Origin: an uncultured Bacteroidota bacterium
Lineage (GTDB): Bacteria > Bacteroidota > Bacteroidia > Flavobacteriales > Flavobacteriaceae
DNA length: 64,000 nucleotides
Assembly (NCBI GenBank): GCA_902517895.1
Contig: CABYEA010000003.1
Span: 1-64,000 of the forward strand
Reading direction: 5' to 3'
The notes beneath the pieces are model-generated. The model was not told the origin of the DNA, made no database searches, and worked only from the letters and a program-made list of their open reading frames with translations. Shown piece after piece: positions 30,058 to 52,414 of this stretch. Position numbers and translations under genes: made by a program. How positions within the stretch are numbered: position 1 is the stretch's first letter; each line of letters opens with the position of its first letter.

Positions 30058-30696
30058 ATGACTAGTAAAAAAATATGTATTGTTGGTGCCGAAGGTTGTG
30101 GGAGAGAAACACTGATGTGTTTAATTGATATAATTGCATCAACAAATTTAAAAATTAATGAAGTTTGTTGTTTTATGCTTCTAGATAAAGATATTAAGGA
30201 AAAAACAATAATGGGTATTAATGTTATCCCTCAATCAACTTTTGATCCAAAATTATATAAAGTTGTAGTAGCAATTGCAGACGTATTGACAAGAAAATCA
30301 GTAGTAAAAAGTTTACCCATTGAAACAGAATACACTAAGATCATTCATCCCAATGCAATAATTTCAGAATCCGTAGAAATAGGTGAAGGATCAATTATTA
30401 CAGCAGGAGTTATTTTAACTCATAATATCAAGATTGGAAATCATGCACTTATAAATCTGCATACAACAATAGCACATGATTGTACAATTGGAAATTATTT
30501 TACAACCGCACCTGGAGTTAGAGTTAGTGGAAACTGTAAATTTGGAGATAATATATATTTAGGTACTAATTCTGCTGTACGACAAGGAGTTACAATTTGT
30601 AACGATGTTACTGTTGCCATGGGGGGATTGGTAATTAAAAATATTGTTCACTCTGGTGAATATTTTGGAAATTCTTTTTTAAAAAGAATACGTTAG
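30058..30696 (+). CDS. NeuD/PglD-type left-handed beta-helix acyltransferase
   Basis: A 212-residue sugar acyltransferase. The N-terminal part is a small Rossmann-like sugar-binding domain (KICIVGAEGCGRETL), and hexapeptide repeats form the C-terminal beta-helix (IIHPNAIISESVEIGEGSIITAG onward), with HTTIAHDCTIGNY carrying the catalytic His. PglD, NeuD and LegH have this fold and acetylate UDP-4-amino sugars or sialic acid. Its place just before an ACP/ketoreductase/ligase set and LegC makes a role in N-acylating the nonulosonic acid precursor plausible. Confidence 0.88.
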   Translation: MTSKKICIVGAEGCGRETLMCLIDIIASTNLKINEVCCFMLLDKDIKEKTIMGINVIPQSTFDPKLYKVVVAIADVLTRKSVVKSLPIETEYTKIIHPNAIISESVEIGEGSIITAGVILTHNIKIGNHALINLHTTIAHDCTIGNYFTTAPGVRVSGNCKFGDNIYLGTNSAVRQGVTICNDVTVAMGGLVIKNIVHSGEYFGNSFLKRIR

Positions 30697-30757
30697 AAGA
30701 TTTTAAAAAAATATTAATTTAAAATAAAAAAGTTAATTTATATAAATAATAATAAAA

Positions 30758-31045
30758 ATGAAAAACTTAGATAGTGATTTAATCACTTTATTAAAAGCTT
30801 TTATAAAAGAAAATGAAATTCAAGTAGATAATAAAATTGATAGTAATTCAAGGTTATTCGGATCTAATTCGGTTTTTGACTCAATGGAATTAGTTCAGTT
30901 TATTGTAGAGGTAGAACAATTTTTGGATGAAGAATATGATATAGAAATTGAATTGACGTCCGACAAAGCTATGTCTAGAAGGTCAAGTCCTTTTATAAGT
31001 CTTAATACCCTAAGCAAGTTTATAATTGAAGAAACCAATGAGTAA
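30758..31045 (+). CDS. Acyl carrier protein
   Basis: A 95-residue acidic carrier protein with the phosphopantetheine attachment Ser42 in FDSMELV, followed by the helix VQFIVEVEQFLDEEYDIEI. It is longer than the fatty-acid ACP and more divergent, typical of dedicated carriers in polysaccharide or secondary-metabolite loci. It overlaps the following reductase by 8 bases. A role in carrying the acyl group activated by the AMP-ligase two genes on is inferred. Confidence 0.85.
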   Translation: MKNLDSDLITLLKAFIKENEIQVDNKIDSNSRLFGSNSVFDSMELVQFIVEVEQFLDEEYDIEIELTSDKAMSRRSSPFISLNTLSKFIIEETNE

Positions 31046-31733
31046 TACAATATTAATTACAGGTAATAGAAAAGGTATTGGAAGATATTTGACTGAATAC
31101 TATTTAAAAAAAGGATTTAATCTCGTAGGGTGCTCTAGAAGTAAATCTGATTTAATTCATAATAATTATTTACATGTAATAGGTGATGTAACTTCAGAAC
31201 AAGACGTTAAAAGAGTTGTTAAAGAATCTAGAAATAAATTTGGGTCTGTTGATGTTTTAATAAATAATGCTGGTAAAGCATCAATGAATCATTCTATATT
31301 AACTCCGGTTTCATCAGTAAAAGATCTTTTTGAAACAAATTATCTAGGAACTTTTCTTTTTTCAAGAGAATGCTCAAAATTGATGATGAAACAAAAATTT
31401 GGTAGAATCATAAATTTTTCTACCGTTGCTGTTCCATTAAACTTAGAGGGGGAAATGGTTTATGCCTCAAGTAAAAGTGCTATAGAAACTATGACTAAAA
31501 TATTGTCAAAGGAAATTTCTAATTATAATATAACCGTCAATGTAATTGGCCCAACACCAATCATGACAGATTTAATTAAAGTAGTTCCAAAAGATAAAAT
31601 TGAAGAAATACTCAATAAGCAGACTTTAAAAAGATTCGGAACCTTTGAAGATGTTTCAAATGTAATTGATTTTTTTATTAGTGATAATAGTTCTTTTGTT
31701 ACAGGTCAGAAAATATATTTAGGAGGGTTATGA
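31038..31733 (+). CDS. Short-chain dehydrogenase, 3-oxoacyl-ACP reductase-like
   Basis: About 231 residues of the classical SDR family: ITGNRKGIGRYLTEYYL at the N-terminus, NNAG, a Ser region, YASSKSAIETM with the catalytic Tyr and Lys, and VIGPTPIMT. The start is ATG at 31038 inside the ACP gene rather than the TTG at 31026. The FabG-like features and the neighbouring ACP suggest reduction of a carrier-bound 3-keto acid to a 3-hydroxy acid, but sugar reduction cannot be excluded. Confidence 0.85.
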   Translation: MSNTILITGNRKGIGRYLTEYYLKKGFNLVGCSRSKSDLIHNNYLHVIGDVTSEQDVKRVVKESRNKFGSVDVLINNAGKASMNHSILTPVSSVKDLFETNYLGTFLFSRECSKLMMKQKFGRIINFSTVAVPLNLEGEMVYASSKSAIETMTKILSKEISNYNITVNVIGPTPIMTDLIKVVPKDKIEEILNKQTLKRFGTFEDVSNVIDFFISDNSSFVTGQKIYLGGL

Positions 31734-33055
31734 TAAATTCAATTATTTCAAAATATGAAGGAATTTGTTTGTATGATGAAAGAGGTTCTTACACTTATTC
31801 TGATTTAAAAAATCAAATTGAAAAATTTAGAACTATTTTAAATAAAGAAATATTAAAAAATCAAAACATAGTTATATACTCAGATTATAATTTTTATTCA
31901 ATATCTCTTCTTCTTTTATTATCAGAATTTCCTGTAAATATTATACCTATTGTAAAGACAACAGAAAAAGAGTTTTCAGAAAAAATAAATTCTTGTATGC
32001 CAAACAAAATTATCTCCTTTGATAATAATGGCTCATTAGATATTAAAAATATAGATATTATTTCAAATAATTCGAAAGATTATTCAATTTATACTATTAA
32101 GGGTGATACAGGAATTGTGCTTTTTTCTAGTGGAACAACAGGAAGCCCCAAAATAATGATTCAGAATTTTTCTAAACTTATTAGTTCTATTAATAAGCCT
32201 CGAAAGAAAAGATCACTAATATTTATTATTTTATTAATGTTTGATCACATTGGAGGCTTAAATACATTATTAAATTGTTTAATTTCTGGATCTCCTTTTG
32301 TTATTCCCAAAGATAGAGCTCCATCGACTATTTTAGACTTAATAGAAAAAAATCAAATAAATGTATTACCTACAACTCCAACTTTTCTTAATTTATTATT
32401 AATTGATGATAATTTTGAGCTAAGCAGATTATCATCTCTTAAGTTAATCACATATGGAACCGAAAGAATGTCTGAAGTCTTATTAAAAAAATTAAATACT
32501 TTTTTACCAAACGTAAAACTTTTACAAACATTTGGTACTAGTGAAACAGGCATATTACAAACTGTAAGTAAATCTTCAAATAGTCTTTATTTTAAAATTG
32601 TTGATGAAAACAAGGATTTCAAGATAGAAAATGGAGAATTATTTCTAAGATCAACAACTTCTGTTAAGGGATATTTGAATCATAGTAATGAGAATTTTAA
32701 AGAAGATGGATGGTATGCTACAGGTGATTTGGTAGAAATTGATAAAGACAACTTCATAAAAATTATAGGAAGAAAAAGTAAAATAATTAATGTCGGTGGT
32801 TTAAAAGTTTTTCCATCTGAGATTGAAGAAGTTTTAAATTCGATTGAAGGTGTTCTAGATTCTACTGTTTACGGACAGAAGAATAATATCACTGGAAATA
32901 TTGTATGCGCAAAAATACAGACTAACTCTAATGAAAAAAAATTACTAAAAGTTTTGATAAAAAAAATATGTAGAAAAAAATTAGACAAGTTTAAAATACC
33001 TGTAAAAATACAATTTGAGGAATTAGCAATTAATAATAGAGGAAAAAAGGCCTAG
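31730..33055 (+). CDS. AMP-dependent acyl/amino acid ligase
   Basis: A 441-residue ANL-superfamily adenylating enzyme. The P-loop SSGTTGSPK begins at residue 133, TFGTSETG and GWYATGDLVEID are the A5/A7 motifs, and IGRKSKIINVGGLKVFPSEIEEVL leads to the C-terminal subdomain. NRGKKA at the very end holds the likely catalytic Lys (the A10 region). It would activate a carboxylic acid and load it on the ACP. It overlaps the SDR by 4 bases, closing a four-gene acyl module. Confidence 0.9.
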   Translation: MINSIISKYEGICLYDERGSYTYSDLKNQIEKFRTILNKEILKNQNIVIYSDYNFYSISLLLLLSEFPVNIIPIVKTTEKEFSEKINSCMPNKIISFDNNGSLDIKNIDIISNNSKDYSIYTIKGDTGIVLFSSGTTGSPKIMIQNFSKLISSINKPRKKRSLIFIILLMFDHIGGLNTLLNCLISGSPFVIPKDRAPSTILDLIEKNQINVLPTTPTFLNLLLIDDNFELSRLSSLKLITYGTERMSEVLLKKLNTFLPNVKLLQTFGTSETGILQTVSKSSNSLYFKIVDENKDFKIENGELFLRSTTSVKGYLNHSNENFKEDGWYATGDLVEIDKDNFIKIIGRKSKIINVGGLKVFPSEIEEVLNSIEGVLDSTVYGQKNNITGNIVCAKIQTNSNEKKLLKVLIKKICRKKLDKFKIPVKIQFEELAINNRGKKA

Positions 33056-33220: not shown

Positions 33221-34363
33221 ATGAATAACGATATTATAAATTTTATAAGGGAATTATATCATTCAAACGATTTCATTCAATTACATAGACCAATTTTTTC
33301 AGAAATAGATAAGAGTTTTGTTCTTGACGCTATTAATTCTAGCTATGTATCTTCTGTAGGAAAATATGTAGATGAGTTTGAAGAGAGGATGTCTACTTAT
33401 ATAGGTTCAAAACATGCAATTGCTGTTGTTAACGGAACATCTGCACTTCACATTGCATTACATTTAGCAGGAGTAAAAAAAAATGATTTAGTTATAACTC
33501 AAGCATTATCATTTGTGGCAACCGCTAATTCAATTAAATATTTAGATGCATATCCAGTTTTTTTAGATATAAATAAAAGTACGCATGGATTATGTCATTT
33601 AGAATTGGAACAATATTTAAAAGATAATGCTAGAATTTCTAAAAATGGAACTTTTCATAAATTAACTGGACAAAGAATTTCTGCATGCGTTCCAATGCAT
33701 ACATTTGGATTTCCTACAAAAATTGATAAAATTATAGATATTTGCAATAATTACGGAATTCATGTTGTTGAAGATGCAGCTGAGTCACTTGGATCAGAGT
33801 ATTTTGGAAAAAAAACAGGTTCTTTTGGCCTTTTAGGAATTTTTAGCTTTAACGGTAATAAAACAATTACTTGTGGTGGCGGTGGTATAATAGTTACAGA
33901 TGATTCTAAGTTAGCTGCTGAAGCAAAATATATAACAACTCAAGCAAAAGTTCCTCATAAGTGGGATTATGTTCACGATAAGATAGGATATAACTATAGG
34001 CTTCCAAATCTTAATGCAGCACTTGCATGTGCACAATTAAACCAACTTGAAGAAATTCTAGAAAATAAAAGAGAAACTGCTTATAGATACAGTAATTTCT
34101 TTAAAAGTATTGGCGTAACATTTTTAAGTGAATTAGAAAATACAAAGTCAAATTATTGGTTAAATTCAATTGTTTTTAATGATGAAGCTTCACGTAATAA
34201 ATTTTTAAAAGAGTCAAATGAATCCGGAGTAATGACAAGGCCTAGTTGGAGATTATTAAACAAACTTAAAATGTTTTCTGATTGTTTAAAGGGAAGTTTA
34301 ATAAATAGTAATTTATTAGAAACTAGACTGGTCAATATACCAAGCGGTTATAGATATAAATAA
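33221..34363 (+). CDS. legC: LegC-family sugar aminotransferase
   Basis: A 380-residue DegT-family PLP aminotransferase. SSYVSSVGKYVDEFEERM, VNGTSALHIALHLAGV, TQALSFVATANSI and CVPMHTFGFP are typical of the LegC group, and the PLP Lys214 is in SFNGNKTITCGGGG. LegC adds the 4-amino group to UDP- or GDP-linked 4-keto-6-deoxy-GlcNAc on the way to legionaminic acid. It is preceded by a 165-base gap in which no clear promoter was found. Next genes are NeuB- and NeuC-like. Confidence 0.88.
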   Translation: MNNDIINFIRELYHSNDFIQLHRPIFSEIDKSFVLDAINSSYVSSVGKYVDEFEERMSTYIGSKHAIAVVNGTSALHIALHLAGVKKNDLVITQALSFVATANSIKYLDAYPVFLDINKSTHGLCHLELEQYLKDNARISKNGTFHKLTGQRISACVPMHTFGFPTKIDKIIDICNNYGIHVVEDAAESLGSEYFGKKTGSFGLLGIFSFNGNKTITCGGGGIIVTDDSKLAAEAKYITTQAKVPHKWDYVHDKIGYNYRLPNLNAALACAQLNQLEEILENKRETAYRYSNFFKSIGVTFLSELENTKSNYWLNSIVFNDEASRNKFLKESNESGVMTRPSWRLLNKLKMFSDCLKGSLINSNLLETRLVNIPSGYRYK

Positions 34364-34388: not shown

Positions 34389-35405
34389 ATGACTACAATA
34401 ATTGCAGAAGCGGGGGTTAATCATAATGGAGATATAGAACTTGCCAAGAAACTTATAGATGTTGCAGTAGATGCAGGTGTAGATTATGTAAAGTTTCAAA
34501 CATTTAAGTCTAATAAAGTGGTAAGTCCCTTTGCAAAAAAAGCTAATTATCAAATTAAGAATGATATTAATGAAGATGACTCTCAGTTAAATATGTTAAA
34601 AAAATTAGAGTTAAGCGAAGAAAATCACATAGAATTAATTAGTTATTGTAAATTAAAGGATATTAAATTTTTTTCTACAGCTTTTGATATGGAAAGTATT
34701 CTATATTTAAATTCCTTAAACTTAGGTATTTTTAAAATCCCAAGTGGTGAAATAACTAATTTCCCTTATTTGAAAGCAGTTGGCAAAACAAAACTTCCAG
34801 TAATATTATCAACTGGAATGGCAAAATTATATGAGATTGAAAATGCAATAAATGTCTTAATTTCTTTTGGAACCTTAAAAAATCAAATTACAGTTTTACA
34901 TTGTAATACTGAATATCCAACCCCAATGATAGATGTTAACCTAAAGGCTATGTTAACAATTAAAGAAAGCCTTGGTGTAGCTGTAGGCTATTCAGATCAC
35001 ACATTAGGAATCGAAGTGCCAATAGCAGCTGTAACGTTGGGTGCTACTGTAATAGAGAAACATTTTACCTTAGATAGAAACCTAAATGGACCTGATCATA
35101 AGGCTTCATTAGAACCAAATGAGCTTAAAGAGATGGTCAATTCTATTAGAAATATTGAAAAGGCAATTTCAGGAAATGGTATTAAAGAGCCATCAAAAAG
35201 CGAAAAAAAGAATATACAAATAGCTAGAAAAAGTATTCATTCATCTAGATATTTAAAATCTGGAACTGTAATTTCTGAATCAGATATAATTTCTTTACGT
35301 CCTGGCGATGGGATATGTTCCATGCAATGGGAAACTATAATTGGTAAAACAATTAATAAAGATATTGAGAAATTTTCAATGTTAAGTTTTAATGATTTTT
35401 TATGA
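34389..35405 (+). CDS. neuB: Nonulosonic acid synthase (NeuB/LegI family)
   Basis: A 338-residue enzyme that condenses phosphoenolpyruvate with a six-carbon amino sugar to give a nine-carbon sialic-type acid. The barrel starts IIAEAGVNHNGD and contains VDYVKFQTFKSN, FKIPSGEITNFPYL, HCNTEYPTP and VGYSDHTLGIE. A C-terminal SAF (antifreeze-like) domain begins near residue 280 (ARKSIHSSRYLKSGTVIS). In context with LegC the product is likely legionaminic acid or a relative rather than Neu5Ac. It overlaps neuC by 4 bases. Confidence 0.93.
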   Translation: MTTIIAEAGVNHNGDIELAKKLIDVAVDAGVDYVKFQTFKSNKVVSPFAKKANYQIKNDINEDDSQLNMLKKLELSEENHIELISYCKLKDIKFFSTAFDMESILYLNSLNLGIFKIPSGEITNFPYLKAVGKTKLPVILSTGMAKLYEIENAINVLISFGTLKNQITVLHCNTEYPTPMIDVNLKAMLTIKESLGVAVGYSDHTLGIEVPIAAVTLGATVIEKHFTLDRNLNGPDHKASLEPNELKEMVNSIRNIEKAISGNGIKEPSKSEKKNIQIARKSIHSSRYLKSGTVISESDIISLRPGDGICSMQWETIIGKTINKDIEKFSMLSFNDFL

Positions 35406-36511
35406 AAATTGGAATTTTAACAAGTTCAAGAGCTGATTATGGGGTTTATTTGCCATTATTAGAGGACTTAAAAAAAGATCATTTTTTTGATCTGCAAATA
35501 ATAGCTTTTGGGACACACCTTTCTGAAAAGCACGGCTTCACCCTCAAAAATATTATAAGAGATGAATATAAAATAATTCATAAGATTAATACTTTTATAA
35601 ACGATGACAGTAAAAAAGGAATTGTAGACTCATATGCTAAAACAATAAATGAATTTTCAAGATTTTGGAATAATAATAATTTTGATTTAGTTTTTTGTCT
35701 AGGTGATCGATTTGAGATGAGTGCAGCTGTTCAATCAAGTATTCCTTTTGGTATTACATTAGCCCATATTGCGGGTGGAGAAACTACACTTGGAGCTATA
35801 GATAATATATATAGGCATCAAATTTCTTTAGCCTCAAAAATTCATTTTGTTTCAACAAAATGTAATCTGAAAAAAGTAATTCAAATTACAGGATGTTCAA
35901 ATTATTTATATAATGTAGGTTCCTTAAGTTTAAGTAAAATAAAACATTTTAAGGCAATAGACAAGTCTATTTTCTTTAAAAAATTTGGCATTAAAAATGA
36001 CCCATATATTTTGGTAACATTTCATCCTGAAACTGTTTCATTAGATTCCAATTTATTATACGTAAAAGAGATTAGTAAAGCATTATCAGAGATTTGCAGA
36101 GAAATAAACGTAATCATCACTATGCCTAATGCTGATACTTTAGGAAGTGTTTACAGAAAAGAAATCAATGATTTGAGAGACAATAATAAAAATTCTATTT
36201 TTTTGATTGAAAATTTTGGTAAAAAATATTACTTCAATGCAATGCATTATTCAACTTTATTACTTGGAAACACATCTAGTGGTATTATTGAAGCAGCATC
36301 ATTTGGTAAATATGTGATTAATGTTGGCGATAGGCAAAAAGGAAGGACTCAGAGTTTAAATGTCCATGATGTGAATTTTAATTCAAATAATATTATTAAA
36401 ACCACTCTTAAATTATTATCCTATGATCCATACTCCGGTGAAAATATTTATTTCAAAACTAACCCTGAAAAGAAAATAATTAAAATACTAAAAAATAATT
36501 TTCACCTTTAG
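35402..36511 (+). CDS. neuC: Hydrolysing UDP-N-acetylhexosamine 2-epimerase (NeuC/LegG family)
   Basis: A 369-residue GT-B-fold epimerase that releases UDP or GDP and inverts C2 to give the free mannosamine-type substrate of NeuB. SSRADYGVYLPLL, CLGDRFEMSAAV, HIAGGETTLGAIDN and GNTSSGIIEAASFGK...VGDRQKGR are conserved blocks. With the preceding aminotransferase and synthase it forms the core of the nonulosonate pathway. Confidence 0.93.
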   Translation: MKIGILTSSRADYGVYLPLLEDLKKDHFFDLQIIAFGTHLSEKHGFTLKNIIRDEYKIIHKINTFINDDSKKGIVDSYAKTINEFSRFWNNNNFDLVFCLGDRFEMSAAVQSSIPFGITLAHIAGGETTLGAIDNIYRHQISLASKIHFVSTKCNLKKVIQITGCSNYLYNVGSLSLSKIKHFKAIDKSIFFKKFGIKNDPYILVTFHPETVSLDSNLLYVKEISKALSEICREINVIITMPNADTLGSVYRKEINDLRDNNKNSIFLIENFGKKYYFNAMHYSTLLLGNTSSGIIEAASFGKYVINVGDRQKGRTQSLNVHDVNFNSNNIIKTTLKLLSYDPYSGENIYFKTNPEKKIIKILKNNFHL

Positions 36512-39205: not shown

Positions 39206-40264
39206 ATGAGTGATAATTTTACAGAACACCTTATCAATAAAGAAGAAACAGTAACATCTGCTCTTGTTAAATTAAATAAATTAGCATCTAACGCTATATT
39301 ATTTCTTGTTGATGCTGATTTTAAATTATATGGATCTCTTACAGATGGAGACCTTAGAAGGGGATTGATAAATGGTAAAACATTACAAACTGATTTAACT
39401 GCTTTTATCCAAAAAAACCCAAAAAAAATAATTCAAAATAATTATTCGGTTAATGATATTATAAAATATAGAAATGATGGCTTTAATATAATTCCATTGG
39501 TTAATAATGATGATATAATTATTGACATAATTAATTTCAATAATCTAAAATCATATTTACCACTTAGTGTTTTTATTGTAGCTGGTGGTAAAGGTGTCAG
39601 GCTTAAGCCTTTAACTAATAATATTCCTAAACCATTATTGAAGATTGGTAAAAAACCAATCCTAGAGCATAATATAGACAGTTTGATAAAATATGGAATA
39701 AAAAATATTGATATTTCTATCAAATATTTAGGCAATCAAATTGAAAAATATTTTGGGGATGGTTCTGCAAAAGGAATTAATATAAATTATATTAAAGAAG
39801 ATAAGCCATTGGGAACTTTAGGTTCTATCACAAAAGCTGAGTCTTTTTTTGATGATGATATTTTATTAATAAACTCTGATTTATTAACTACAATTAATTA
39901 CGAAAAATTATATCTTTTTTTTAAAGAAAATGAAGCCGATATGGTTGTTGCTGGTGTTCCATATAAGGTTAATGTTCCATACGGGGTTCTTGAATCTAAA
40001 ATCGATAATAATATTATTTCAATAAAAGAAAAACCAACATATACTTATTATTCAAATGCAGGTATATATATTTTTAAGAAAAAATTTATTGATTTAATTC
40101 CTTCAAATACTCATTATAATGCTACGGATTTAATAGATAAATTATTATCCCTCAACTTAAAAGTAATGAAATATCAAATGACTGAGTATTGGCTAGATAT
40201 TGGAAAAAAAGATGATTTTGTTAAGGCGCAAAATGATATAGAAAATTTAGAATATTTTAAATGA
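39206..40264 (+). CDS. CBS-domain sugar nucleotidyltransferase (PtmE-like)
   Basis: A 352-residue two-domain protein. Residues about 1-115 form a CBS pair (LLVDADFKLYGSLTDGDLRRGLI-like segment), and from 118 a nucleotidyltransferase domain starts VFIVAGGKGVRLKPLT with IPKPLLKIGKKPILEH. The same fusion in Campylobacter PtmE makes GDP-glucosamine from glucosamine-1-phosphate for legionaminic acid. That match supports a GDP-linked pathway here. It overlaps the CMP-transferase gene by 4 bases. Confidence 0.85.
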   Translation: MSDNFTEHLINKEETVTSALVKLNKLASNAILFLVDADFKLYGSLTDGDLRRGLINGKTLQTDLTAFIQKNPKKIIQNNYSVNDIIKYRNDGFNIIPLVNNDDIIIDIINFNNLKSYLPLSVFIVAGGKGVRLKPLTNNIPKPLLKIGKKPILEHNIDSLIKYGIKNIDISIKYLGNQIEKYFGDGSAKGININYIKEDKPLGTLGSITKAESFFDDDILLINSDLLTTINYEKLYLFFKENEADMVVAGVPYKVNVPYGVLESKIDNNIISIKEKPTYTYYSNAGIYIFKKKFIDLIPSNTHYNATDLIDKLLSLNLKVMKYQMTEYWLDIGKKDDFVKAQNDIENLEYFK

Positions 40265-40968
40265 AAGTACTAAAATTAATATTAGCTAGAGGTGGAAGTA
40301 AAGGATTACCAAGGAAAAATATAAAAAAATTATTGGATAAACCCCTAATTCAATATTCTATTGAAGCTGGGAAAAAAAGTAAATATGGGTCAGATGTATA
40401 TGTTTCAACTGATTGTTCAAGTATTGCCAAGGTAGCTAAATCTTGTGGAGCCATAGTGCCATTTTTAAGACCTAGTGAATTTGCAAGAGATCAATCTACT
40501 AGTGCGGATGCAATCTTGCATATGATAAACTATTTAGAAAGTGAAAATAAAATATTTGAATATATCTTACTGCTAGAACCAACATCTCCACTAAGAGATT
40601 ACATTGATATAAATAAAAGTCTAGATTTTTTTAAATCGAATAATAATGCAAAATGTTGTGTTTCAGTAGTAAAATCAGAAATCTCTCATCCTTCATTTTT
40701 ATTTTCAAAAAAAAATAATTTTTTAATGTCATATTCGTCCAGTAATAAAGTGGTTAGAAGACAAGACTTAAATGATTTGTATTACCCTGAAGGAAGTATT
40801 TACATCAGTCAAATTGAAACTTATAAAAAAACTAAGACTTTCTATAACGATGATTTGACTGTTGGTTATGAAATTCCCTATTGGAAATCTTTTGAAATAG
40901 ATACAATTGAAGATTTTTTAATTATAGAAAGTATAATGAAAAATAATAATATCAAAAAACTAAAATAA
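40261..40968 (+). CDS. neuA: CMP-nonulosonic acid cytidylyltransferase (NeuA/LegF family)
   Basis: A 235-residue cytidylyltransferase that activates the nine-carbon acid as CMP-sugar. LILARGGSKGLPRKNIKKL is the CTP-binding signature, VYVSTDCSSIAKVAK follows, and LLEPTSPLRDYIDI is the usual middle motif. The C-terminal FEIDTIEDFLIIE completes it. It lacks a C-terminal SGNH/acetylesterase domain. Overlaps the preceding gene by 4 bases. Confidence 0.93.
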   Translation: MKVLKLILARGGSKGLPRKNIKKLLDKPLIQYSIEAGKKSKYGSDVYVSTDCSSIAKVAKSCGAIVPFLRPSEFARDQSTSADAILHMINYLESENKIFEYILLLEPTSPLRDYIDINKSLDFFKSNNNAKCCVSVVKSEISHPSFLFSKKNNFLMSYSSSNKVVRRQDLNDLYYPEGSIYISQIETYKKTKTFYNDDLTVGYEIPYWKSFEIDTIEDFLIIESIMKNNNIKKLK

Positions 40969-40972
40969 TAAT

Positions 40973-42151
40973 ATGGAAGAATTGAGAAAGTGTAAAAAAT
41001 GTTTATTACCAGAAACTTACGAAACATTATCTCTTAATGATGATAATAATGGGTGTAATATGTGCAGCACCAGTTCATTTAAAAAAGAAAGTATTGATTG
41101 GAATAAAAGAAAGTTGATGCTTGATGAAGTCATAGAAAAACATAGGGGAAAATATGAATATGATTGTATTGTTCCTTTTAGTGGAGGAAAAGATAGTTCA
41201 TATACACTGTATTATTTAATGAAGGAGTATAAAATTAAACCGCTAGTTGTTAGATTTAATCATGGTTTTATGAGGTCTAATCATGAAAAAAATTCTAAAA
41301 GAGTTTTAAAAAAGTTAGGTGCTGATTTTATAGATTTCACTTCAAATTGGAAAATTGTTAAAAAACTAATGTTTGAGTCATTTGAAAGAAAAACTGATTT
41401 TTGTTGGCATTGTCACACAGGAATTTATTCTTTTCCTTTGCAAATTGCTATAAAATTTAATGTCCCCTTAATATTATGGGGAGAACCGTTAGCTGAAATG
41501 TCTGCTTATTATACATATGAAGATAATGAAATTGAATGGGAAGATGAAGAGAAATTTAACATGGTAAGAAATCTTGGTATTACTGCTGATGATATGTGGG
41601 GTATGATTAATAGTGAAGAAGATCCGATAGATAAAAGAGATCTTATTCCTTATACATATCCTAAATTAGAGGACCTTCAAAAAATGAATTATCATTCTGT
41701 TTGTTTAGGTAGTTATATCCCATGGGATTACAAAAAAAATACAGAAATAATTATGAATGAACTAGGATGGGAATCAGATGAATTAGAAGGAGTTCCGTCT
41801 GAGATTAATCAAGAAGGAGCAAAAATTGAATGTTGGATGCAAGCTACAAGAGATTATATCAAATACCTTAAACGCGGTTATAGTAGAGTTACACAATTGA
41901 CAAATTTTGAATTAAGAAATGGTAAGATGTCTGTTGAAGAAGCCCAACGGTGGATTGACAATTTTGAAGGTAAAAAGCCTGCATCACTCGAAATTTTTTT
42001 GGAATATATGGGCATGACTGAGGATGAGTTTAACTCTAAGATATCTGATTTTGTTGTACCTCCGTTTAAACCTAATTTTGATAATCTAAAAACTGGTAAA
42101 CCCGCTCACGATATGGATGAATGGTACAGAGAAAATAATATTAAAAAATGA
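40973..42151 (+). CDS. N-acetyl sugar amidotransferase (WbpG/PseA family)
   Basis: A 392-residue protein with an N-terminal CxxC...CxxC cluster (Cys7, 10, 28, 31) and a PP-loop SGGKDS at residues 70-75, as in ATP-pyrophosphatase amidotransferases. In Pseudomonas WbpG and Campylobacter PseA, it turns an N-acetyl group into an acetimidoyl (amidino) group using ammonia. HisH- and HisF-like partners follow immediately (4-base overlap, then 2-base gap), which is the known arrangement. The likely substrate here is the legionaminic-type acid, by inference. Confidence 0.9.
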   Translation: MEELRKCKKCLLPETYETLSLNDDNNGCNMCSTSSFKKESIDWNKRKLMLDEVIEKHRGKYEYDCIVPFSGGKDSSYTLYYLMKEYKIKPLVVRFNHGFMRSNHEKNSKRVLKKLGADFIDFTSNWKIVKKLMFESFERKTDFCWHCHTGIYSFPLQIAIKFNVPLILWGEPLAEMSAYYTYEDNEIEWEDEEKFNMVRNLGITADDMWGMINSEEDPIDKRDLIPYTYPKLEDLQKMNYHSVCLGSYIPWDYKKNTEIIMNELGWESDELEGVPSEINQEGAKIECWMQATRDYIKYLKRGYSRVTQLTNFELRNGKMSVEEAQRWIDNFEGKKPASLEIFLEYMGMTEDEFNSKISDFVVPPFKPNFDNLKTGKPAHDMDEWYRENNIKK

Positions 42152-42756
42152 TAGGTGTTATTGATTGTGGGGTCGGGAATTTATCATCAGTAAAAAACGC
42201 ATTAGATTTCATAGGTGCTGAGTCGATAATAATTAAAGATCCTAATCTTGTTAAATCTGTGGACAAGCTCTTGCTCCCTGGCGTAGGTTCATTTAAGGTT
42301 GCTATGGATAGTTTAACAGCAGAAGGTTTTGTCTCAGAAATAAAGAATTTTGCAGATACAGGAAAATATATTTTAGGTATTTGTCTTGGAATGCAGTTGC
42401 TAGCAGAAACAGGATATGAGTCTGGGATTACAAAAGGCTTAGGCTTAATTAAAGGTAAAGTAGAGTTATTCAAATCTATTAGTTTAAGAATACCTCACAT
42501 GGGTTGGAATGGAATAAAATTAAATAACGAACATCCAATTTTAAACAATGTTAAATTAAAAGCAGATTTTTATTTTGTACATTCTTATTTTTTCAACACT
42601 AGTTCTGTAAATAATATATTAACATATACTGATTATGGGTCTGAGTTTCCGTCTATTGTATGCAACGATAGGAAAAATGTTATTGGAATACAGTTTCACC
42701 CTGAAAAGAGTCAAAAACAAGGAATAAAAATCCTTCAAAACTTTTTAAGTTTATAG
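42148..42756 (+). CDS. hisH: HisH-like glutamine amidotransferase partner
   Basis: A 202-residue class I glutamine amidotransferase that releases ammonia from glutamine. IDCGVGNLSSVKNAL, LPGVGSF, the nucleophile Cys79 in GICLGMQLL and the IQFHPEKS His/Glu pair are all present, so it should be active. It is not in a histidine operon. Its neighbours WbpG and HisF point to sugar amidation. Confidence 0.92.
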   Translation: MIGVIDCGVGNLSSVKNALDFIGAESIIIKDPNLVKSVDKLLLPGVGSFKVAMDSLTAEGFVSEIKNFADTGKYILGICLGMQLLAETGYESGITKGLGLIKGKVELFKSISLRIPHMGWNGIKLNNEHPILNNVKLKADFYFVHSYFFNTSSVNNILTYTDYGSEFPSIVCNDRKNVIGIQFHPEKSQKQGIKILQNFLSL

Positions 42757-42758
42757 GC

Positions 42759-43517
42759 ATGTTAAAAAAAAGATTAATACCAACACTTCTTTTAAGAAAT
42801 AGTAGAATGGTAAAAGGAGTTAATTTTGATAATTACCGGGATACAGGAGATCCTATTTTCGCGTCAAAAGTATATAATTCTCAATATGTAGATGAGTTAG
42901 TGTTTATTGATATAGATGCTACAAATGAATCTAGATTAACGAATAAAGAAATAATAAAAAGTGTTTCCAAAGAATGTTTTATGCCATTAACTATCGGAGG
43001 CGGTGTTAATTCGGTTGGAGTCATTAGAGATTTACTTTTAGTTGGAGCAGATAAAGTTATGATAAACTCTGCTGCATATAATGATGAAAATTTAATTAAA
43101 AAAAGTTCAGAAATTTTTGGTTCTCAATGTATTGTTATCGGAGTTGATGTTAGATTTGAAAAAGATGAATATGTTCTTTACAAAAATTCCGGAAAAATAA
43201 AATTAAAGACAAAATTAACTGATCATTTAAAAAGAATGGAGGAGTTAGGAGCTGGTGAGTTTTTTATAAATAATATTACTAACGATGGAGTAATGAAAGG
43301 TTATGATCTAAATTTAATTAATATTGTAACATCAAATACAAATGTCCCTGTTATTGCGAGTGGAGGAGCTGGTAATTTTAAACATTTAGTAGATGCCTAT
43401 AAATCTACCAATGTCAGTGGATTAGCAATGGCTAGTATTTTTCATTTTGGGGATAATAATCCTATTAGAGCAAGATTTCATTTAAAAAATAACAAGGTAA
43501 ATATTAAAGAAGTTTAA
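42759..43517 (+). CDS. hisF: HisF-like barrel lacking the catalytic Asp11
   Basis: A 252-residue TIM barrel of the HisF family. The N-terminal KRLIPTLLLRNSRMVKG aligns with the canonical (C/A)LDVKDGR segment, but the catalytic Asp11 is Leu and Cys9 is Thr. The ammonia-gate Arg5, the interface GADKVMINSAA (Lys of the tunnel), Asp in IGVDVRF and phosphate loop ASGGAG are kept. This suggests a subunit that passes ammonia from HisH to WbpG but no longer makes imidazoleglycerol phosphate. Confidence 0.9.
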   Translation: MLKKRLIPTLLLRNSRMVKGVNFDNYRDTGDPIFASKVYNSQYVDELVFIDIDATNESRLTNKEIIKSVSKECFMPLTIGGGVNSVGVIRDLLLVGADKVMINSAAYNDENLIKKSSEIFGSQCIVIGVDVRFEKDEYVLYKNSGKIKLKTKLTDHLKRMEELGAGEFFINNITNDGVMKGYDLNLINIVTSNTNVPVIASGGAGNFKHLVDAYKSTNVSGLAMASIFHFGDNNPIRARFHLKNNKVNIKEV

Positions 43518-44228: not shown

Positions 44229-44969
44229 ATGTGCAGATTAGAAAATAAGATCATTATTGTAACAGGAGGTAATGGACTCATCGGAAAGCAGTTAGTTGAA
44301 AAAATAACAAAGGAAGGTGCTGTTTGTTATAATGCTGACATTAAGGTAAATAATTCACTCGACAGCGAAATATATTGTGATATAAATGATGTTAAATCTG
44401 TTGATTCATTAATCAAGGAAGTATTCAATAAACACGGTAGAATAGATGGTTTAGTAAATAACGCTTATCCAAGAACTAAGGATTGGGGCAATAAATTTGA
44501 AGATGTAAAATTAGAATCGTGGAAAAAAAATATTGACATGCAATTAAACAGCGTATTTTATATTTGCCAACAAGTTTTAAAGATTATGAAAAAACAACAA
44601 TATGGTTCCATAGTTAATATTTCATCAATTTATGGAGTTGTAGCTAGTGATTTTTCTGTATATGAAAATACTGATGGTATGACATCTCCAGCGGCATATT
44701 CAGCTATCAAATCCGGTTTAATTAATTTTAGTCGTTATATGGCATCCTATTATGGAAAAAATGGTATTAGAGTTAATTGTGTTTCACCAGGTGGAATTCT
44801 GGATAATCAAAACACTACTTTTGTTGAAAACTATTCAAAAAAAGTTCCATTAAAAAGATTAGGAAAAGCAAGTGAAATTTCTCCAGCTGTTTCTTTTTTA
44901 CTTTCGGAGGAGGCTTCATATATAACCGGTCAAAATTTAATAGTTGATGGGGGTTGGACTAGCATATAA
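44229..44969 (+). CDS. Short-chain dehydrogenase, PtmA-like
   Basis: A 246-residue classical SDR. VTGGNGLIGKQLVEKI is the cofactor loop, NNAYPRTKDWGNKFEDV and SSIYGVVASDFSVYE are like the flagellin modification protein PtmA, YSAIKSGL holds Tyr and Lys, and the end is GQNLIVDGGWTSI. PtmA belongs to the legionaminic acid (GDP-glucosamine branch) gene set of Campylobacter. The reaction is not settled here. Confidence 0.85.
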   Translation: MCRLENKIIIVTGGNGLIGKQLVEKITKEGAVCYNADIKVNNSLDSEIYCDINDVKSVDSLIKEVFNKHGRIDGLVNNAYPRTKDWGNKFEDVKLESWKKNIDMQLNSVFYICQQVLKIMKKQQYGSIVNISSIYGVVASDFSVYENTDGMTSPAAYSAIKSGLINFSRYMASYYGKNGIRVNCVSPGGILDNQNTTFVENYSKKVPLKRLGKASEISPAVSFLLSEEASYITGQNLIVDGGWTSI

Positions 44970-47621: not shown

Positions 47622-48821
47622 ATGAAAAACTTCAACGAAACAAATTTTTTAAATTATTTTTTAAATAGAACCAGTTTTTTTCAAATTGATATTGATAATA
47701 ATTTTCAATTTATTTTGAAAAAAATACGTAATAAATCATTATTAGTAATCGGTGGAGCTGGAACAATAGGCTCAAATTATATTAAAGAAATATTAAAATT
47801 TCAACCTTCAAAGATTGTTGTTGTAGATACAAATGAAAATGGACTTACAGAATTAACACGAGATCTAAGAAGTAGTGGGAGTTTAGATTATGAAATTGAT
47901 TATAGAACTTATCCGATTAATTTAAATGATTTAGTATTTGATAAACTATTTTTATCTGAAAATAATTTTGATACTATTGCTAATTTTGCTGCTCATAAAC
48001 ATGTTAGATCTGAAAAAGATATATATTCAATAGAAGCCCTAATTAAGAATAATGTTTACGGAGCTATCAAATTACTAAAGTTACTAGAGCTAAAGCCGCC
48101 AAAACAATTTTTTAGTGTATCAACTGACAAGGCAGCTAATCCAGTCAATGTTATGGGGGCTTCTAAAAGTATAATGGAAAACATAATTTTAACTTACCAA
48201 AATAAATTTAAAGTTATCACTGCAAGGTTTGCTAATGTTGCATTTTCTAATGGAAGTTTATTAGACGGTTTTACTTATAGAATTAATAAAAATCAACCTT
48301 TAGCATGCCCTACAAACATCAAAAGATTTTTTGTTACTCCTCAAGAATCCGGTCAAATATGTATGTTGGCTACTTTTTTAGGAGATTCAGGAAATATTTT
48401 TTTTCCAAATTTCAATTTTAATGAAGATCAAATCTTTTTTAAAGACATAGCTATAAAATTTATTCAGCAAATTGGTCTTAAGCCTTTAATTTGTGATTCA
48501 GAGAAAGAGGCTAAAATTCGTATGAAGAATTTTGACAGCTCTAGTTATCCAATTTATTTTTTTAACTCTGAAACTTCTGGTGAAAAAGAATATGAGGAAT
48601 TTTTTACCGATCAGGAGGAGGTGGATTTAAAATCTTATAAATCTTTAGGTTTTATAATAAAAGATAATATATCACTTGATACATCTAAGCTTGTTAATGA
48701 TTTTGATAATTTATTTTCTTCTGCTGATCTGACCAAGAAAGAAATTATTAAATTAATGCAAAAATATGTATTGAATTTTAATCATATTGAAAAAGGAAAA
48801 AATTTAGATCAAAAAATGTAG
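47622..48821 (+). CDS. CapD-like soluble sugar 4,6-dehydratase/epimerase
   Basis: A 399-residue protein of the CapD family without the N-terminal membrane domain. VIGGAGTIGSNYIKEIL is the NAD loop, AAHKHVRSEKD, STDKAANPVNVMGASKSIME and FAN are family signatures. Such enzymes act as UDP- or GDP-GlcNAc 4,6-dehydratases (FlaA1/PglF-like). It could supply the 4-keto-6-deoxy substrate for LegC, as no typical LegB gene is in the window. An additional 60-70 residue C-terminal tail is unassigned. Confidence 0.82.
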   Translation: MKNFNETNFLNYFLNRTSFFQIDIDNNFQFILKKIRNKSLLVIGGAGTIGSNYIKEILKFQPSKIVVVDTNENGLTELTRDLRSSGSLDYEIDYRTYPINLNDLVFDKLFLSENNFDTIANFAAHKHVRSEKDIYSIEALIKNNVYGAIKLLKLLELKPPKQFFSVSTDKAANPVNVMGASKSIMENIILTYQNKFKVITARFANVAFSNGSLLDGFTYRINKNQPLACPTNIKRFFVTPQESGQICMLATFLGDSGNIFFPNFNFNEDQIFFKDIAIKFIQQIGLKPLICDSEKEAKIRMKNFDSSSYPIYFFNSETSGEKEYEEFFTDQEEVDLKSYKSLGFIIKDNISLDTSKLVNDFDNLFSSADLTKKEIIKLMQKYVLNFNHIEKGKNLDQKM

Positions 48822-51106: not shown

Positions 51107-52414
51107 ATGTTAAAAGGTCAATCCCTATACAAAGAAGCAAAAAAAATTATTCCAGGAGGTACTATGTTATTGTCAAAACGGCCTGAACTATTTTCACCCA
51201 ATAATTGGCCATCATATTTTTCTAAAACTAGTGGATGTAACGTTTGGGATCTTGATAATAATAAATACACTGACATGTCTCATATGTCTGTTGGAACTAA
51301 TTCTTTAGGATATAACAACAAGAATGTAGATGCTCAGGTTAAATTAATTATTGAGAAAGGAAATCTATCTACTTTAAATTGCCCCGAAGAAGTAAAACTA
51401 GCAGAAAAACTAATTGAACTTCATGACTGGGCTGATATGGTTAGACTAGCCAGAACTGGAGGTGAAGCTAATTCCATAGCAATAAGAATTGCTCGTGCAG
51501 CTTCTGGCAAAGATAAAATTGCAATTTGTGGTTATCATGGTTGGCATGATTGGTACCTATCAGCAAATATTCAAAGTAAACAAAATCTTAACGATCACTT
51601 ACTGACTGGTTTAAGCTCTAACGGTGTGCCTAAAGGCTTAGAGGGAACAGTGATTCCGTTTAGATATAATGATATTAATGAAATAAGAGAAATTGTAAAA
51701 AATAACCCAGATCTAGCAGCTATTAAGATGGAGGTAGTTAGGAGTGTTGAACCTAAAAATGGCTATTTAGAAGAAATTAGAAAAATCTGTGATAATAATA
51801 ATATTATATTAATTTTTGACGAATGTACATCTGGTTTTAGAGAAACCTATGGTGGAGTTCATAAAAAATATAAGGTTTATCCGGACATTTGTATGTTTGG
51901 AAAAGCCCTTGGTAATGGTTATGCTATTACAGCAGTCATAGGTAGGAGAAATATAATGGAGGCGGCACAAAATACGTTTATTAGTAGTACTTTTTGGACT
52001 GAAAGAATTGGACCAACTGCCGCTTTAGCTTCACTTAAAGAAATGAAAAGATTAGATTCATGGAATTTCATTACCAATCAGGGAAAATATTTAAAAAAAA
52101 GATGGTTGAAAATGGCATCTGATGAAGGAGTGAAGATTTCAATTACAGGTATGGACGCATTAGCTACATTCACTATAAATTCTGATAAATGGCTTAATTA
52201 TAAAACTTATATCACTGAATCAATGTTGAAAAATTACTATCTAGCTGCTAATGTTGTTTATTTGTCAACTAAGCATACAGATGATGTTATTAATAAGTAT
52301 ATAGATTCAATGTATCCAATATTTAAAAAAATCAGTGAATTTGAGAATGGTTATGATACAGTGGATAATTATATTAAAAACGTTTGCCATGGAGGATTTA
52401 AGAGGTTAAACTAG
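51107..52414 (+). CDS. Class III aminotransferase, glutamate-1-semialdehyde aminomutase-like
   Basis: A 435-residue PLP enzyme. KIIPGGTMLLSKRPELF, RTGGEANSIAIRIARAASG, YHGWHDWY, FDECTSGFRETYGG and the Lys in FGKALGNGYAITAVIG resemble HemL, but the context is a glycan locus and it lacks full HemL motifs. Relatives in polysaccharide loci probably transaminate a sugar-linked or three/four-carbon ketone. It follows the phosphatase-fold gene by 4 bases, suggesting a joint pathway. Confidence 0.8.
   Translation: MLKGQSLYKEAKKIIPGGTMLLSKRPELFSPNNWPSYFSKTSGCNVWDLDNNKYTDMSHMSVGTNSLGYNNKNVDAQVKLIIEKGNLSTLNCPEEVKLAEKLIELHDWADMVRLARTGGEANSIAIRIARAASGKDKIAICGYHGWHDWYLSANIQSKQNLNDHLLTGLSSNGVPKGLEGTVIPFRYNDINEIREIVKNNPDLAAIKMEVVRSVEPKNGYLEEIRKICDNNNIILIFDECTSGFRETYGGVHKKYKVYPDICMFGKALGNGYAITAVIGRRNIMEAAQNTFISSTFWTERIGPTAALASLKEMKRLDSWNFITNQGKYLKKRWLKMASDEGVKISITGMDALATFTINSDKWLNYKTYITESMLKNYYLAANVVYLSTKHTDDVINKYIDSMYPIFKKISEFENGYDTVDNYIKNVCHGGFKRLN

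What the first reader, a model, noticed from the sequence alone, without database searches (positions are those of the whole stretch)
30058..33055. Dedicated acyl module (acyltransferase, ACP, ketoreductase, AMP-ligase) in front of the nonulosonate genes
A carrier with intact Ser42, a FabG-like reductase and an adenylating ligase overlap each other and follow a PglD/NeuD-type acyltransferase. Together they could build, reduce and transfer a small hydroxy-acid onto an amino sugar. Nonulosonic acids and flavobacterial amino sugars with 3-hydroxybutyryl-type N-acyl groups are known. This looks like a route to such a group using an ACP rather than CoA, and I know of no described pathway with exactly this set.
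Basis: partly seen in the sequence, partly recalled or inferred. Interest (0 to 1): 0.62.

Follow-up and report, generated by a model that had tools for sequence, protein, structure and literature searches.

The report
Mobile acyl-ACP cassette in sugar cluster
In front of a bacterium's sialic-acid-like sugar genes lies a widespread three-gene cassette that probably builds an unusual small hydroxy-acid on its own carrier protein and hands it to an amino sugar, using a ligase of the kind that starts the antibiotics mupirocin and thiomarinol.

Summary
In detail: a PglD/NeuD-like acyltransferase (30058-30696), an acyl carrier protein with Ser42 (30758-31045), a short-chain dehydrogenase (31038-31733) and an adenylate-forming ligase (31730-33055) precede legC-neuB-neuC. 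ACP-SDR-ligase is the real unit: 72 of 80 relatives examined (best 80 of 536) keep that order. The PglD gene is one of several exchangeable acyltransferases (6 of 75 other trios have one within 300 bp). Nine of the 80 loci carry neuB within about 10 kb; the link to nonulosonate genes arose several times, and the window's nearest three relatives lack it. Sets with the same annotations beside nonulosonate genes are in print for Aeromonas and Enterobacteriaceae flagellar islands, read as fatty-acid genes. The best precedent is MupQ-MupS-MacpD of mupirocin, which makes 3-hydroxypropionyl-ACP from malonyl-CoA: ligases of that type (thiomarinol plasmid and two others) fall among the trio ligases, but reductase and ACP do not group with theirs. 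No condensing enzyme was found in the window. I favour a small omega-hydroxyacyl-ACP (4-hydroxybutyryl or 3-hydroxypropionyl) transferred by the PglD-like enzyme to the LegC amine; 3-hydroxybutyryl remains open. The acyl group is inferred, not shown. New variant of a known kind.

The parts
30058..30696 (+). PglD/NeuD-like left-handed beta-helix N-acyltransferase, proposed to move the acyl group from the ACP to the 4-amino group of the LegC product
   Evidence: Hexapep and PglD_N; TIGR03570 below cut-off, LpxD-type model second-best; VioB and other sugar N-acetyltransferase chains in PDB, 'AHDCTIG' aligned to 'AHDCVIG' of 4m9c. Function in this pathway inferred.
30758..31045 (+). acyl carrier protein of a divergent family (DS..LV ... 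KAMS...SPF), Ser42 for phosphopantetheine
31038..31733 (+). SDR reductase of the AGxASMNH subfamily; NNAG-motif N76, T129 at the usual catalytic Ser position, Y142, K146
31730..33055 (+). adenylate-forming (ANL) ligase related to MupQ-type ligases, proposed to load the dedicated ACP
33221..34363 (+). LegC-family aminotransferase, makes the proposed amine acceptor
   Evidence: TIGR04181 510.9 bits over cut-off 420
34389..35405 (+). NeuB-family nonulosonate synthase
   Evidence: TIGR03569 474.7 bits over cut-off
35402..36511 (+). NeuC-type hydrolysing 2-epimerase
   Evidence: TIGR03568 350.8 bits over cut-off
39206..40264 (+). PtmE-like nucleotidyltransferase, suggests the GDP-sugar legionaminate route
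   Evidence: NTP_transferase; residues 10-114 match the end of GutQ/KpsF models; the name PtmE is by recalled likeness
40261..40968 (+). CMP-nonulosonate synthetase (NeuA/PseF-like)
   Evidence: CTP_transf_3, PseF model below cut-off
40973..43517 (+). WbuX-type N-acetyl sugar amidotransferase with HisH- and HisF-like partners: a likely acetamidino group as a second N-substituent
   Evidence: TIGR03573 299.4 bits over cut-off for the first protein; the HisH/HisF names rest on reading the translations, no profile search

Best explanation
A portable acyl-ACP supply cassette. The ligase adenylates a small acid (most likely the free carboxylate of a dicarboxylic acid or its CoA half-thioester, as MupQ is reported to do with malonyl-CoA) and loads it on the dedicated ACP; the SDR reduces the other end or a keto group while it is ACP-bound, giving a short hydroxyacyl-ACP, most likely omega-hydroxy (4-hydroxybutyryl from succinyl, or 3-hydroxypropionyl from malonyl). 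The PglD-like enzyme then acylates the 4-amino group of the LegC product, so the group ends up as the 7-N-acyl of a legionaminic-type nonulosonate. Shown: the genes, kept catalytic residues, conservation of the trio, kinship of the ligase to MupQ-type ligases. Inferred: carrier loading, order of steps, acceptor. Least certain: the identity of the acyl group.
For: Trio in the same order and strand in 72 of 80 loci examined. Of 76 trios: ACP Ser 76, SDR NNAG Asn, Tyr and Lys 76, ligase A3 Lys 76 and A10 Lys 75. Pairwise identities of the three proteins correlate (Mantel r 0.49, 0.35, 0.43; highest of 999 permutations 0.145; shared species history may contribute). Ligases beside an SDR and an ACP on the thiomarinol plasmid and in two polyketide loci fall among the trio ligases (fork 95/93; one clade of 28 trio, MupQ-type and Rhizobium rows against 5 outgroup rows not rejected, p-AU 0.619) and share DHIGG and YG[TS]E.M with them (3 of 3 MupQ-type and Rhizobium; 62 and 60 of 76 trios; 0 of 5 outgroup ligases). 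MupQ, MupS and MacpD make 3-hydroxypropionyl-ACP from malonyl-CoA, and thiomarinol uses a 4-hydroxybutanoyl starter (PMC10098928). No FabH- or KS-like ORF in the window by BLAST, so the ligase should supply the carbon. Hexapeptide and GNAT acyltransferases are the commonest acyl-transferring neighbours among the families listed. A 4-hydroxybutyramido sugar is listed for Pseudoalteromonas (PMC3210612, passage).
Against: The SDR forms its own clade (99/95) while MupS-type SDRs fall with the cell's FabG and the PtmA-like SDR (97/94; a joint clade is not rejected, p-AU 0.158), and the MupS-side ACPs have no BLAST match among 76 trio ACPs, so the reduction may be a different one. The SDR has Thr in 72 of 76 where the MupS-type and Rhizobium ones have Ser. 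In the free ligase tree a very long outgroup row (L148) falls inside the fork that joins MupQ-type and 10 trio ligases; only the constrained tree keeps it out. MupQ itself was not in hand. Nineteen of 80 loci have a FabH-like enzyme near by, which would fit chain building. The window's nearest three relatives are not near neuB. Close homologues of the PglD protein occur in two genomes without the trio. No chemistry of this glycan is known.
Confidence: 0.42

Rival explanations
1. Beta-hydroxyacyl version: the ligase (or the cell's fatty acid synthesis) puts acetoacetate or another beta-keto acid on the ACP and the SDR reduces it FabG-like to (R)- or (S)-3-hydroxybutyryl-ACP, which the PglD-like enzyme transfers to the sugar amine.
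For: SDR best NCBIfam model is 3-oxoacyl-ACP reductase, below cut-off (158.5 of 297.75 bits); in P. syringae vioS-vioB-vioR-acp serve an N-(3-hydroxy-1-oxobutyl) viosamine and the vioR mutant loses modified viosamine (PMC3927599, passages); Flexibacter maritimus LPS has a nonulosonate with a 3-hydroxybutyramido group (PMC3210612, passage); FabH-like genes in 19 of 80 loci.
Against: No condensing enzyme found in the window; 3-hydroxybutanoyl nonulosonates are made in Acinetobacter by modules for which no such trio is listed in the passages read (PMC9676051), so a dedicated ligase and ACP would be superfluous.
Confidence: 0.25
2. Another small acid, not a simple hydroxybutyrate: for example a dihydroxy-acid, 2-hydroxyglutarate, malate or an amino acid, loaded by the ligase and adjusted by the SDR.
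For: N-acyl groups of this kind are listed for marine bacteria (malyl, 2-hydroxyglutaryl; PMC3210612, passages). Nearest carrier-protein fold match is the partner of a stand-alone glycine:carrier-protein ligase (Z 9.9), though Z of this size is common for helical bundles. Contexts of the trio are very varied.
Against: Nothing in the sequence points to one of these; the nearest ligases with known context are MupQ-type.
Confidence: 0.18
3. Lipid version: the trio makes a fatty acyl or aldehyde for a liposugar, as suggested for Aeromonas and enterobacterial flagellar islands.
For: Authors' reading of ACP, reductase, AMP-synthetase, luxE and luxC sets (PMC7874193, PMC4875605, passages).
Against: No condensing enzyme found in the window; no LuxC or LuxE among the best families of the 20 window proteins scanned with NCBIfam (other window proteins not scanned); in the tree the ligase lies with starter-unit ligases and apart from three of the cell's four other ANL ligases, the fourth being a very long branch.
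Confidence: 0.07
4. The trio serves a different product and sits in the polysaccharide locus by accident of insertion; the PglD-like enzyme is an ordinary CoA-dependent acetyltransferase.
For: Nearest relatives L030, L031, L032 are not near neuB; PglD homologues occur without the trio.
Against: The trio lies inside a run of same-strand ORFs from 25396 to 57278, directly before legC; nonulosonate association arose repeatedly (6 changes on the SDR tree, at least 4 forced, 0 of 500 shuffles as low).
Confidence: 0.08

Closest known systems
MupQ-MupS-MacpD (mupirocin) and the inferred counterpart on the thiomarinol plasmid pTML1 (L006)
   Same: Ligase, SDR and stand-alone ACP side by side; ligases fall together and share two motifs.
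   Different: In L006 the order is ligase-SDR-ACP; SDR and ACP not shown to be of the same families; the product goes to a ketosynthase (750-aa KS protein in L006), not to a sugar acyltransferase.
ACP, 3-oxoacyl-ACP reductase and AMP-dependent synthetase (orf1-3) of Aeromonas group II flagellar glycosylation islands
   Same: Same three annotated functions, numbered in the same order, next to nonulosonate genes (PMC7874193, passages).
   Different: Pseudaminic, not legionaminic, genes; pseH (recalled as a GNAT) instead of PglD; luxE and luxC in the set; sequence relation not tested here.
P. syringae viosamine island vioS-vioB-vioR-acp
   Same: ACP, reductase and a VioB acyltransferase for a 3-hydroxybutyryl-type amino sugar (PMC3927599, passages).
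   Different: A FabH-type synthase in place of the ligase; sugar is viosamine; sequences not compared.
Acinetobacter lgaABCHIFG and psaABCGHF, Shigella boydii 7 psb genes
   Same: 7-N-(R)-3-hydroxybutanoyl legionaminic and pseudaminic acids (PMC9676051, PMC3628348, passages).
   Different: No dedicated ACP, SDR or ligase listed in the passages read.
LpxD
   Same: Left-handed beta-helix enzyme that N-acylates a sugar amine from a 3-hydroxyacyl-ACP (recalled); its model PRK00892 is the second-best NCBIfam match of the window protein.
   Different: Long acyl chains, lipid A acceptor, far below the model cut-off (70.3 against 207 bits).

Membership tests
Acyl carrier protein | Ser in a DSx motif at the start of helix II | tested here: met
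   Ser42; 76 of 76 trios; model helix 41-59 in Met-less numbering
Acyl carrier protein | recognised by the PP-binding profile PF00550 | tested here: inconclusive
   Window protein not matched; 8 of 54 family members match at E 0.01
Acyl carrier protein | four-helix carrier fold | tested here: inconclusive
   Model pLDDT 86.7; Foldseek list led by carrier proteins but no E under 0.001; VIA Z 9.9, rmsd 2.1, 77 aligned, a Z that helical bundles can reach by arrangement alone
ANL adenylate-forming ligase | AMP-binding and C-terminal domains with A3 and A10 lysines | tested here: met
MupQ-MupS-MacpD type cassette | ligase of the MupQ type | tested here: met
   tree and motifs, with the thiomarinol-plasmid ligase standing in for MupQ, which was not in hand; one long outgroup row disturbs the free tree
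MupQ-MupS-MacpD type cassette | reductase of the MupS type | tested here: inconclusive
   separate clade favoured, joint clade not rejected, p-AU 0.158
MupQ-MupS-MacpD type cassette | ACP of the MacpD type | tested here: not met
   no BLAST match at E 0.001 between two MupS-side ACPs (L005, L006) and 76 trio ACPs
MupQ-MupS-MacpD type cassette | ketosynthase that extends the starter | tested here: not met
   no ORF of 60 aa or more in the window matches three FabH-like proteins or the L006 KS by BLAST at E 0.001
MupQ-MupS-MacpD type cassette | conversion of malonyl-CoA (or succinyl) to an omega-hydroxyacyl-ACP | not testable with these tools
   needs an assay
PglD/NeuD acyltransferase | PglD_N plus hexapeptide repeats | tested here: met
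   PF17836 25.6 bits over 23.4, PF00132 47 over 27; TIGR03570 below its own cut-off
Legionaminic acid pathway | LegC, NeuB and NeuC families together | tested here: met
   all three over cut-off
Legionaminic acid pathway | LegB dehydratase (TIGR04180) | tested here: inconclusive
   6 matches in the genome, none over the cut-off of 475 bits; genome 68% complete; a protein at 47622 that I call CapD-like by recall (no NCBIfam match) has a 41% relative beside LegC in L048 and may replace it

The most novel reading that the evidence does not exclude
A widespread, horizontally moving cassette (dedicated ACP, AGxASMNH-type SDR, MupQ-type ligase) turns dicarboxylyl-CoA into omega-hydroxyacyl-ACP for surface sugars: the long-known 4-hydroxybutyryl (and perhaps 3-hydroxypropionyl) N-acyl groups of bacterial glycans and the starter units of mupirocin and thiomarinol would then come from one ligase family, and phages carry the cassette together with neuB.
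Probability: 0.33. Interest if true: 0.7.

Novelty: new variant of a known kind. Interest (0 to 1): 0.5.

Why it matters
N-acyl groups decide how nonulosonates and other surface sugars are recognised, yet for the rarer ones such as 4-hydroxybutyryl I met no described gene set in the searches that asked for hydroxybutanoyl groups beside sugar terms (listings and some passages, open-licence papers only). A cassette recognisable by three signatures (ACP KAMS...SPF, SDR AGxASMNH, ligase DHIGG + YG[TS]E.M) makes the question testable in one in vitro assay and lets one flag candidate glycans in hundreds of genomes and in phage contigs.

Tried and rejected
Considered and set aside: that the SDR is PtmA (a PtmA-like SDR is at 44229-44969, PtmA model below cut-off; the trio SDR is a separate clade); that it is the cell's FabG; that the acyltransferase is a fixed partner (6 of 75 other trios have a PglD-like gene within 300 bp, one of them on the other strand; two close homologues stand alone); that Shewanella SfmC is the same SDR (its authors liken it weakly to PtmA, PMC3765264; abstract, outline and passages seen; not tested by sequence); that the Vibrionaceae nonulosonate survey describes the trio (PMC7371886: 'acyl carrier', 'ACP' and 'ligase' do not occur). 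Led nowhere: ACP search of viral contigs (36 stretches, no relative); E. coli genomes with the Vibrio SDR DNA (no match); phage records with the SDR (138 records, the 20 listed at 32.1% identity or less); ACP against PDB sequences (none at E 10). PMC8159325 was opened but held none of the terms I asked for. I could not test whether the Aeromonas, enterobacterial or Yersinia ruckeri O1 sets are homologous: I had no named protein search over those genomes left. Y. ruckeri O1-specific genes include legionaminic genes and a phosphopantetheine-site protein, AMP-dependent synthetase and 3-oxoacyl-ACP reductase (BI323_13885-13895, PMC5552943, passages); that its O antigen carries 4-hydroxybutyryl on a legionaminic-type acid is recalled only. 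The 376-Da pseudaminic derivative and 102-Da cap of A. piscicola (PMC7874193) were considered as hints to a C4 dihydroxyacyl group, but cannot be tied to these genes.

L046, a neuB locus with the ligase on the other side of the ACP, is not in the 76. The bootstrap of the first SDR tree had not settled.
Full report
What is there. The window lies in an unnamed assembly (1.26 Mb in 41 contigs, 68% complete). From 25396 to 57278 the picked ORFs of 120 aa or more lie on the + strand and read as one polysaccharide locus. The stretch in question holds a PglD/NeuD-like acyltransferase (30058-30696), a 95-aa carrier protein (30758-31045), an SDR (31038-31733) and an ANL ligase (31730-33055); ACP and SDR genes overlap by 8 nt, SDR and ligase by 4 nt. 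LegC, NeuB and NeuC follow, then proteins that read as flippase and polymerase (no profile search), a PtmE-like nucleotidyltransferase, a CMP-sugar synthetase, a WbuX-type amidotransferase over its cut-off, HisH- and HisF-like partners, and a PtmA-like SDR at 44229.

The carrier protein. No curated profile finds it at E 0.001 and the PDB has no sequence relative at E 10, but 8 of 54 of its family match PF00550 at E 0.01. The AlphaFold2 model (pLDDT 86.7) is a four-helix bundle with Ser42 at the start of the second helix; its best structural matches are carrier proteins (Z 9.9 to the partner of a stand-alone glycine:carrier-protein ligase; helical bundles can reach such Z by arrangement alone, and Foldseek gives no E under 0.001). 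Ser is invariant in 76 of 76.

It is a cassette, and it moves. The ACP was found in 1 of 100 relatives (the window itself); in 4 of 397 genomes of the family, three of them only at E 3e-4 or worse; and at E below 1e-10 in 6 of 395 genomes of the phylum, the window included (8 of 395 at E 0.001). The SDR profile at E 1e-60 found 5 of the same number, the window included. A plasmid search found the set in Rhizobium sp. T136, with a GNAT-like gene (just under its Pfam cut-off) between ACP and SDR and with a hexapeptide acyltransferase and a CmlS-named halogenase downstream. Module SDRs share N[NC]AGxASMN(H) (AGxASMNH in 60 of 80). A scan of the species-genome collection with that profile gave 536 relatives, of which the best 80 were kept and examined. 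In these the ACP lies within 200 bp upstream of the SDR in 78, the ligase within 200 bp downstream in 74, and all three in order in 72. Identities of the three proteins correlate above 999 permutations, which shared species history may partly explain. Carriers span Bacteroidota, Campylobacterota, Verrucomicrobiota, Chloroflexota, Planctomycetota, Pseudomonadota, Bacillota and others.

Neighbours. Upstream genes (52 of 53 scanned) include hexapeptide acyltransferases in 8, GNAT (Acetyltransf_3) in 5, initiating sugar transferases in 6, sulfotransferases in 3; downstream genes (53 of 57) include hexapeptide in 7 (PglD_N in 3), GNAT in 3, AAC(3)-type in 2, MBOAT in 2, Acyl_transf_3 in 1; FabH-type domains are in 3 and 3 and FabH-like genes in 19 of 80 loci. 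NeuB lies in 9 of 80 loci, with about 10 kb seen on each side where the contig allows: four Campylobacterota, Vibrio sp. CAU 1672, Sediminibacterium, an Alteromonadaceae MAG, Gayadomonas, a Bacillota MAG. On the SDR tree the nonulosonate label (9 rows) needs 6 changes, at least 4 forced by well-supported branches, 0 of 500 shuffles as low; the bootstrap had not settled. The window's clade (with L030, Bergeyella L031 and Chryseobacterium L032; 100/96) has no other member near neuB. So nonulosonate clusters seem to have recruited the cassette more than once. A PglD-like gene lies within 300 bp of 6 of 75 other trios, one of them (L020, same phylum) 42% identical to the window's; two closer homologues (55 and 50%) stand alone in genomes where the trio SDR was not found. 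The fourth gene is therefore an exchangeable acyltransferase.

What it does. I found no FabH- or KS-like ORF in the window; the cell's FabH-type and FabG genes are elsewhere. The ligase should bring the acid. Its nearest ligases of known context are those next to polyketide synthases on plasmid pTML1 of Pseudoalteromonas SANK 73390, in Burkholderia stagnalis and in Bradyrhizobium, each followed by an SDR and an ACP or ACP-like gene. In the ligase tree these fall with 10 trio ligases under one fork (95/93); that fork also takes in a very long row from the cell's own genome (L148), but holding trio, MupQ-type and Rhizobium ligases together against all five outgroup rows gives a tree that is slightly better (lnL 3.44 higher; p-AU 0.619). 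They share two motifs that the five outgroup ligases lack. On pTML1 the set is followed by a 750-aa ketosynthase; [quoted passage not shown] thiomarinol is primed with 4-hydroxybutanoyl (PMC10098928: abstract, Introduction and passages read), and labelled succinate and 4-hydroxybutyrate are built in (PMC4685789, passage). That L006 is the thiomarinol counterpart is my inference from plasmid, position and size. By analogy the trio should give a small hydroxyacyl-ACP, most likely omega-hydroxy. Against a full equation: the SDR is a separate clade with Thr in place of the catalytic Ser in 72 of 76, and the ACPs are not alike. The analogy is fair for the ligase and weaker for the reduction.

Acceptor. 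The gene order (acyltransferase, trio, legC, neuB, neuC) and the recalled pathway LegB-LegC-LegH-LegG-LegI-LegF put the acyl group on the C4 amine, later N-7 of the nonulosonate. A left-handed beta-helix enzyme taking a hydroxyacyl from an ACP to a sugar amine has a precedent in LpxD (recalled; its model is also the second-best NCBIfam match). The WbuX-type protein with HisH- and HisF-like partners suggests an acetimidoyl group at the other amine. No LegB model passes its cut-off in the 68% complete genome; the CapD-like protein at 47622, with a relative next to LegC in Vibrio L048, may serve.

Known or new. A set with these annotations beside nonulosonate genes is in print: PMC7874193 lists ACP, 3-oxoacyl-ACP reductase and AMP-dependent synthetase with luxE and luxC next to pse genes in group II islands (98 Aeromonas strains), and PMC4875605 ACP (72 strains), CaiC-type ligase (71) and FabG (71) in enterobacterial islands; both speak of fatty acid synthesis and suggest a liposugar (passages). 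I matched them by annotation and order only. In ten full-text searches, seen as listings with passages of 15 papers, I met no paper that describes the cassette as a family or assigns it an acyl product; the library lacks most subscription journals. Hence 'new variant of a known kind'.

Noticed in passing
L025/L116, L027/L114, L028/L115 (IMG/VR contigs): Contigs filed as viral carry NeuB-family synthases (L025 and L027 scanned, Pfam E about 1e-31), a GNAT and an ACP-SDR-ligase trio; the ligase frame is full length (444 aa) in L025 but shorter (337-342 aa) in the other two. L027 also has terminase and portal genes. Nonulosonate-type acyl sugars may be phage-encoded.
   Followed up: partly
L029/L117: Another contig filed as viral has a GNAT, a CMP-sugar synthetase-like gene, ACP-SDR-ligase (ligase frame 374 aa) and an AAC(3)-type domain fused to DUF4910/DUF2172.
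   Followed up: partly
L003 11911-18123 (Rhizobium sp. T136 plasmid pT136b): Trio variant with a GNAT-like gene, a hexapeptide acyltransferase, a CmlS-named halogenase and a hydrolase: looks like an unstudied small-molecule pathway.
   Followed up: no
L007 5937-8204 (Tistrella mobilis pTM3): An ACP of this family lies at the end of one open frame whose front reads like a B12/radical-SAM protein (by eye), with a methyltransferase-like frame downstream.
   Followed up: no
L030 9703-13843: Closest trio to the window (SDR 75%, ligase 63%, ACP 63% identity) is followed by a 306-aa protein without a Pfam match and a polysaccharide deacetylase: perhaps deacetylate, then re-acylate a sugar.
   Followed up: partly
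window 51107-52414: Glutamate-1-semialdehyde-aminomutase-like aminotransferase (models below cut-off) inside the polysaccharide locus; might make an amino sugar, for instance an 8-amino nonulosonate.
   Followed up: no
G401 C1:1718724-1719335 and G424 C1:1813639-1814256 (L142, L143): Close homologues (55 and 50%) of the PglD-like protein stand alone, with no trio and none of the window's sugar genes within about 9 kb.
   Followed up: yes
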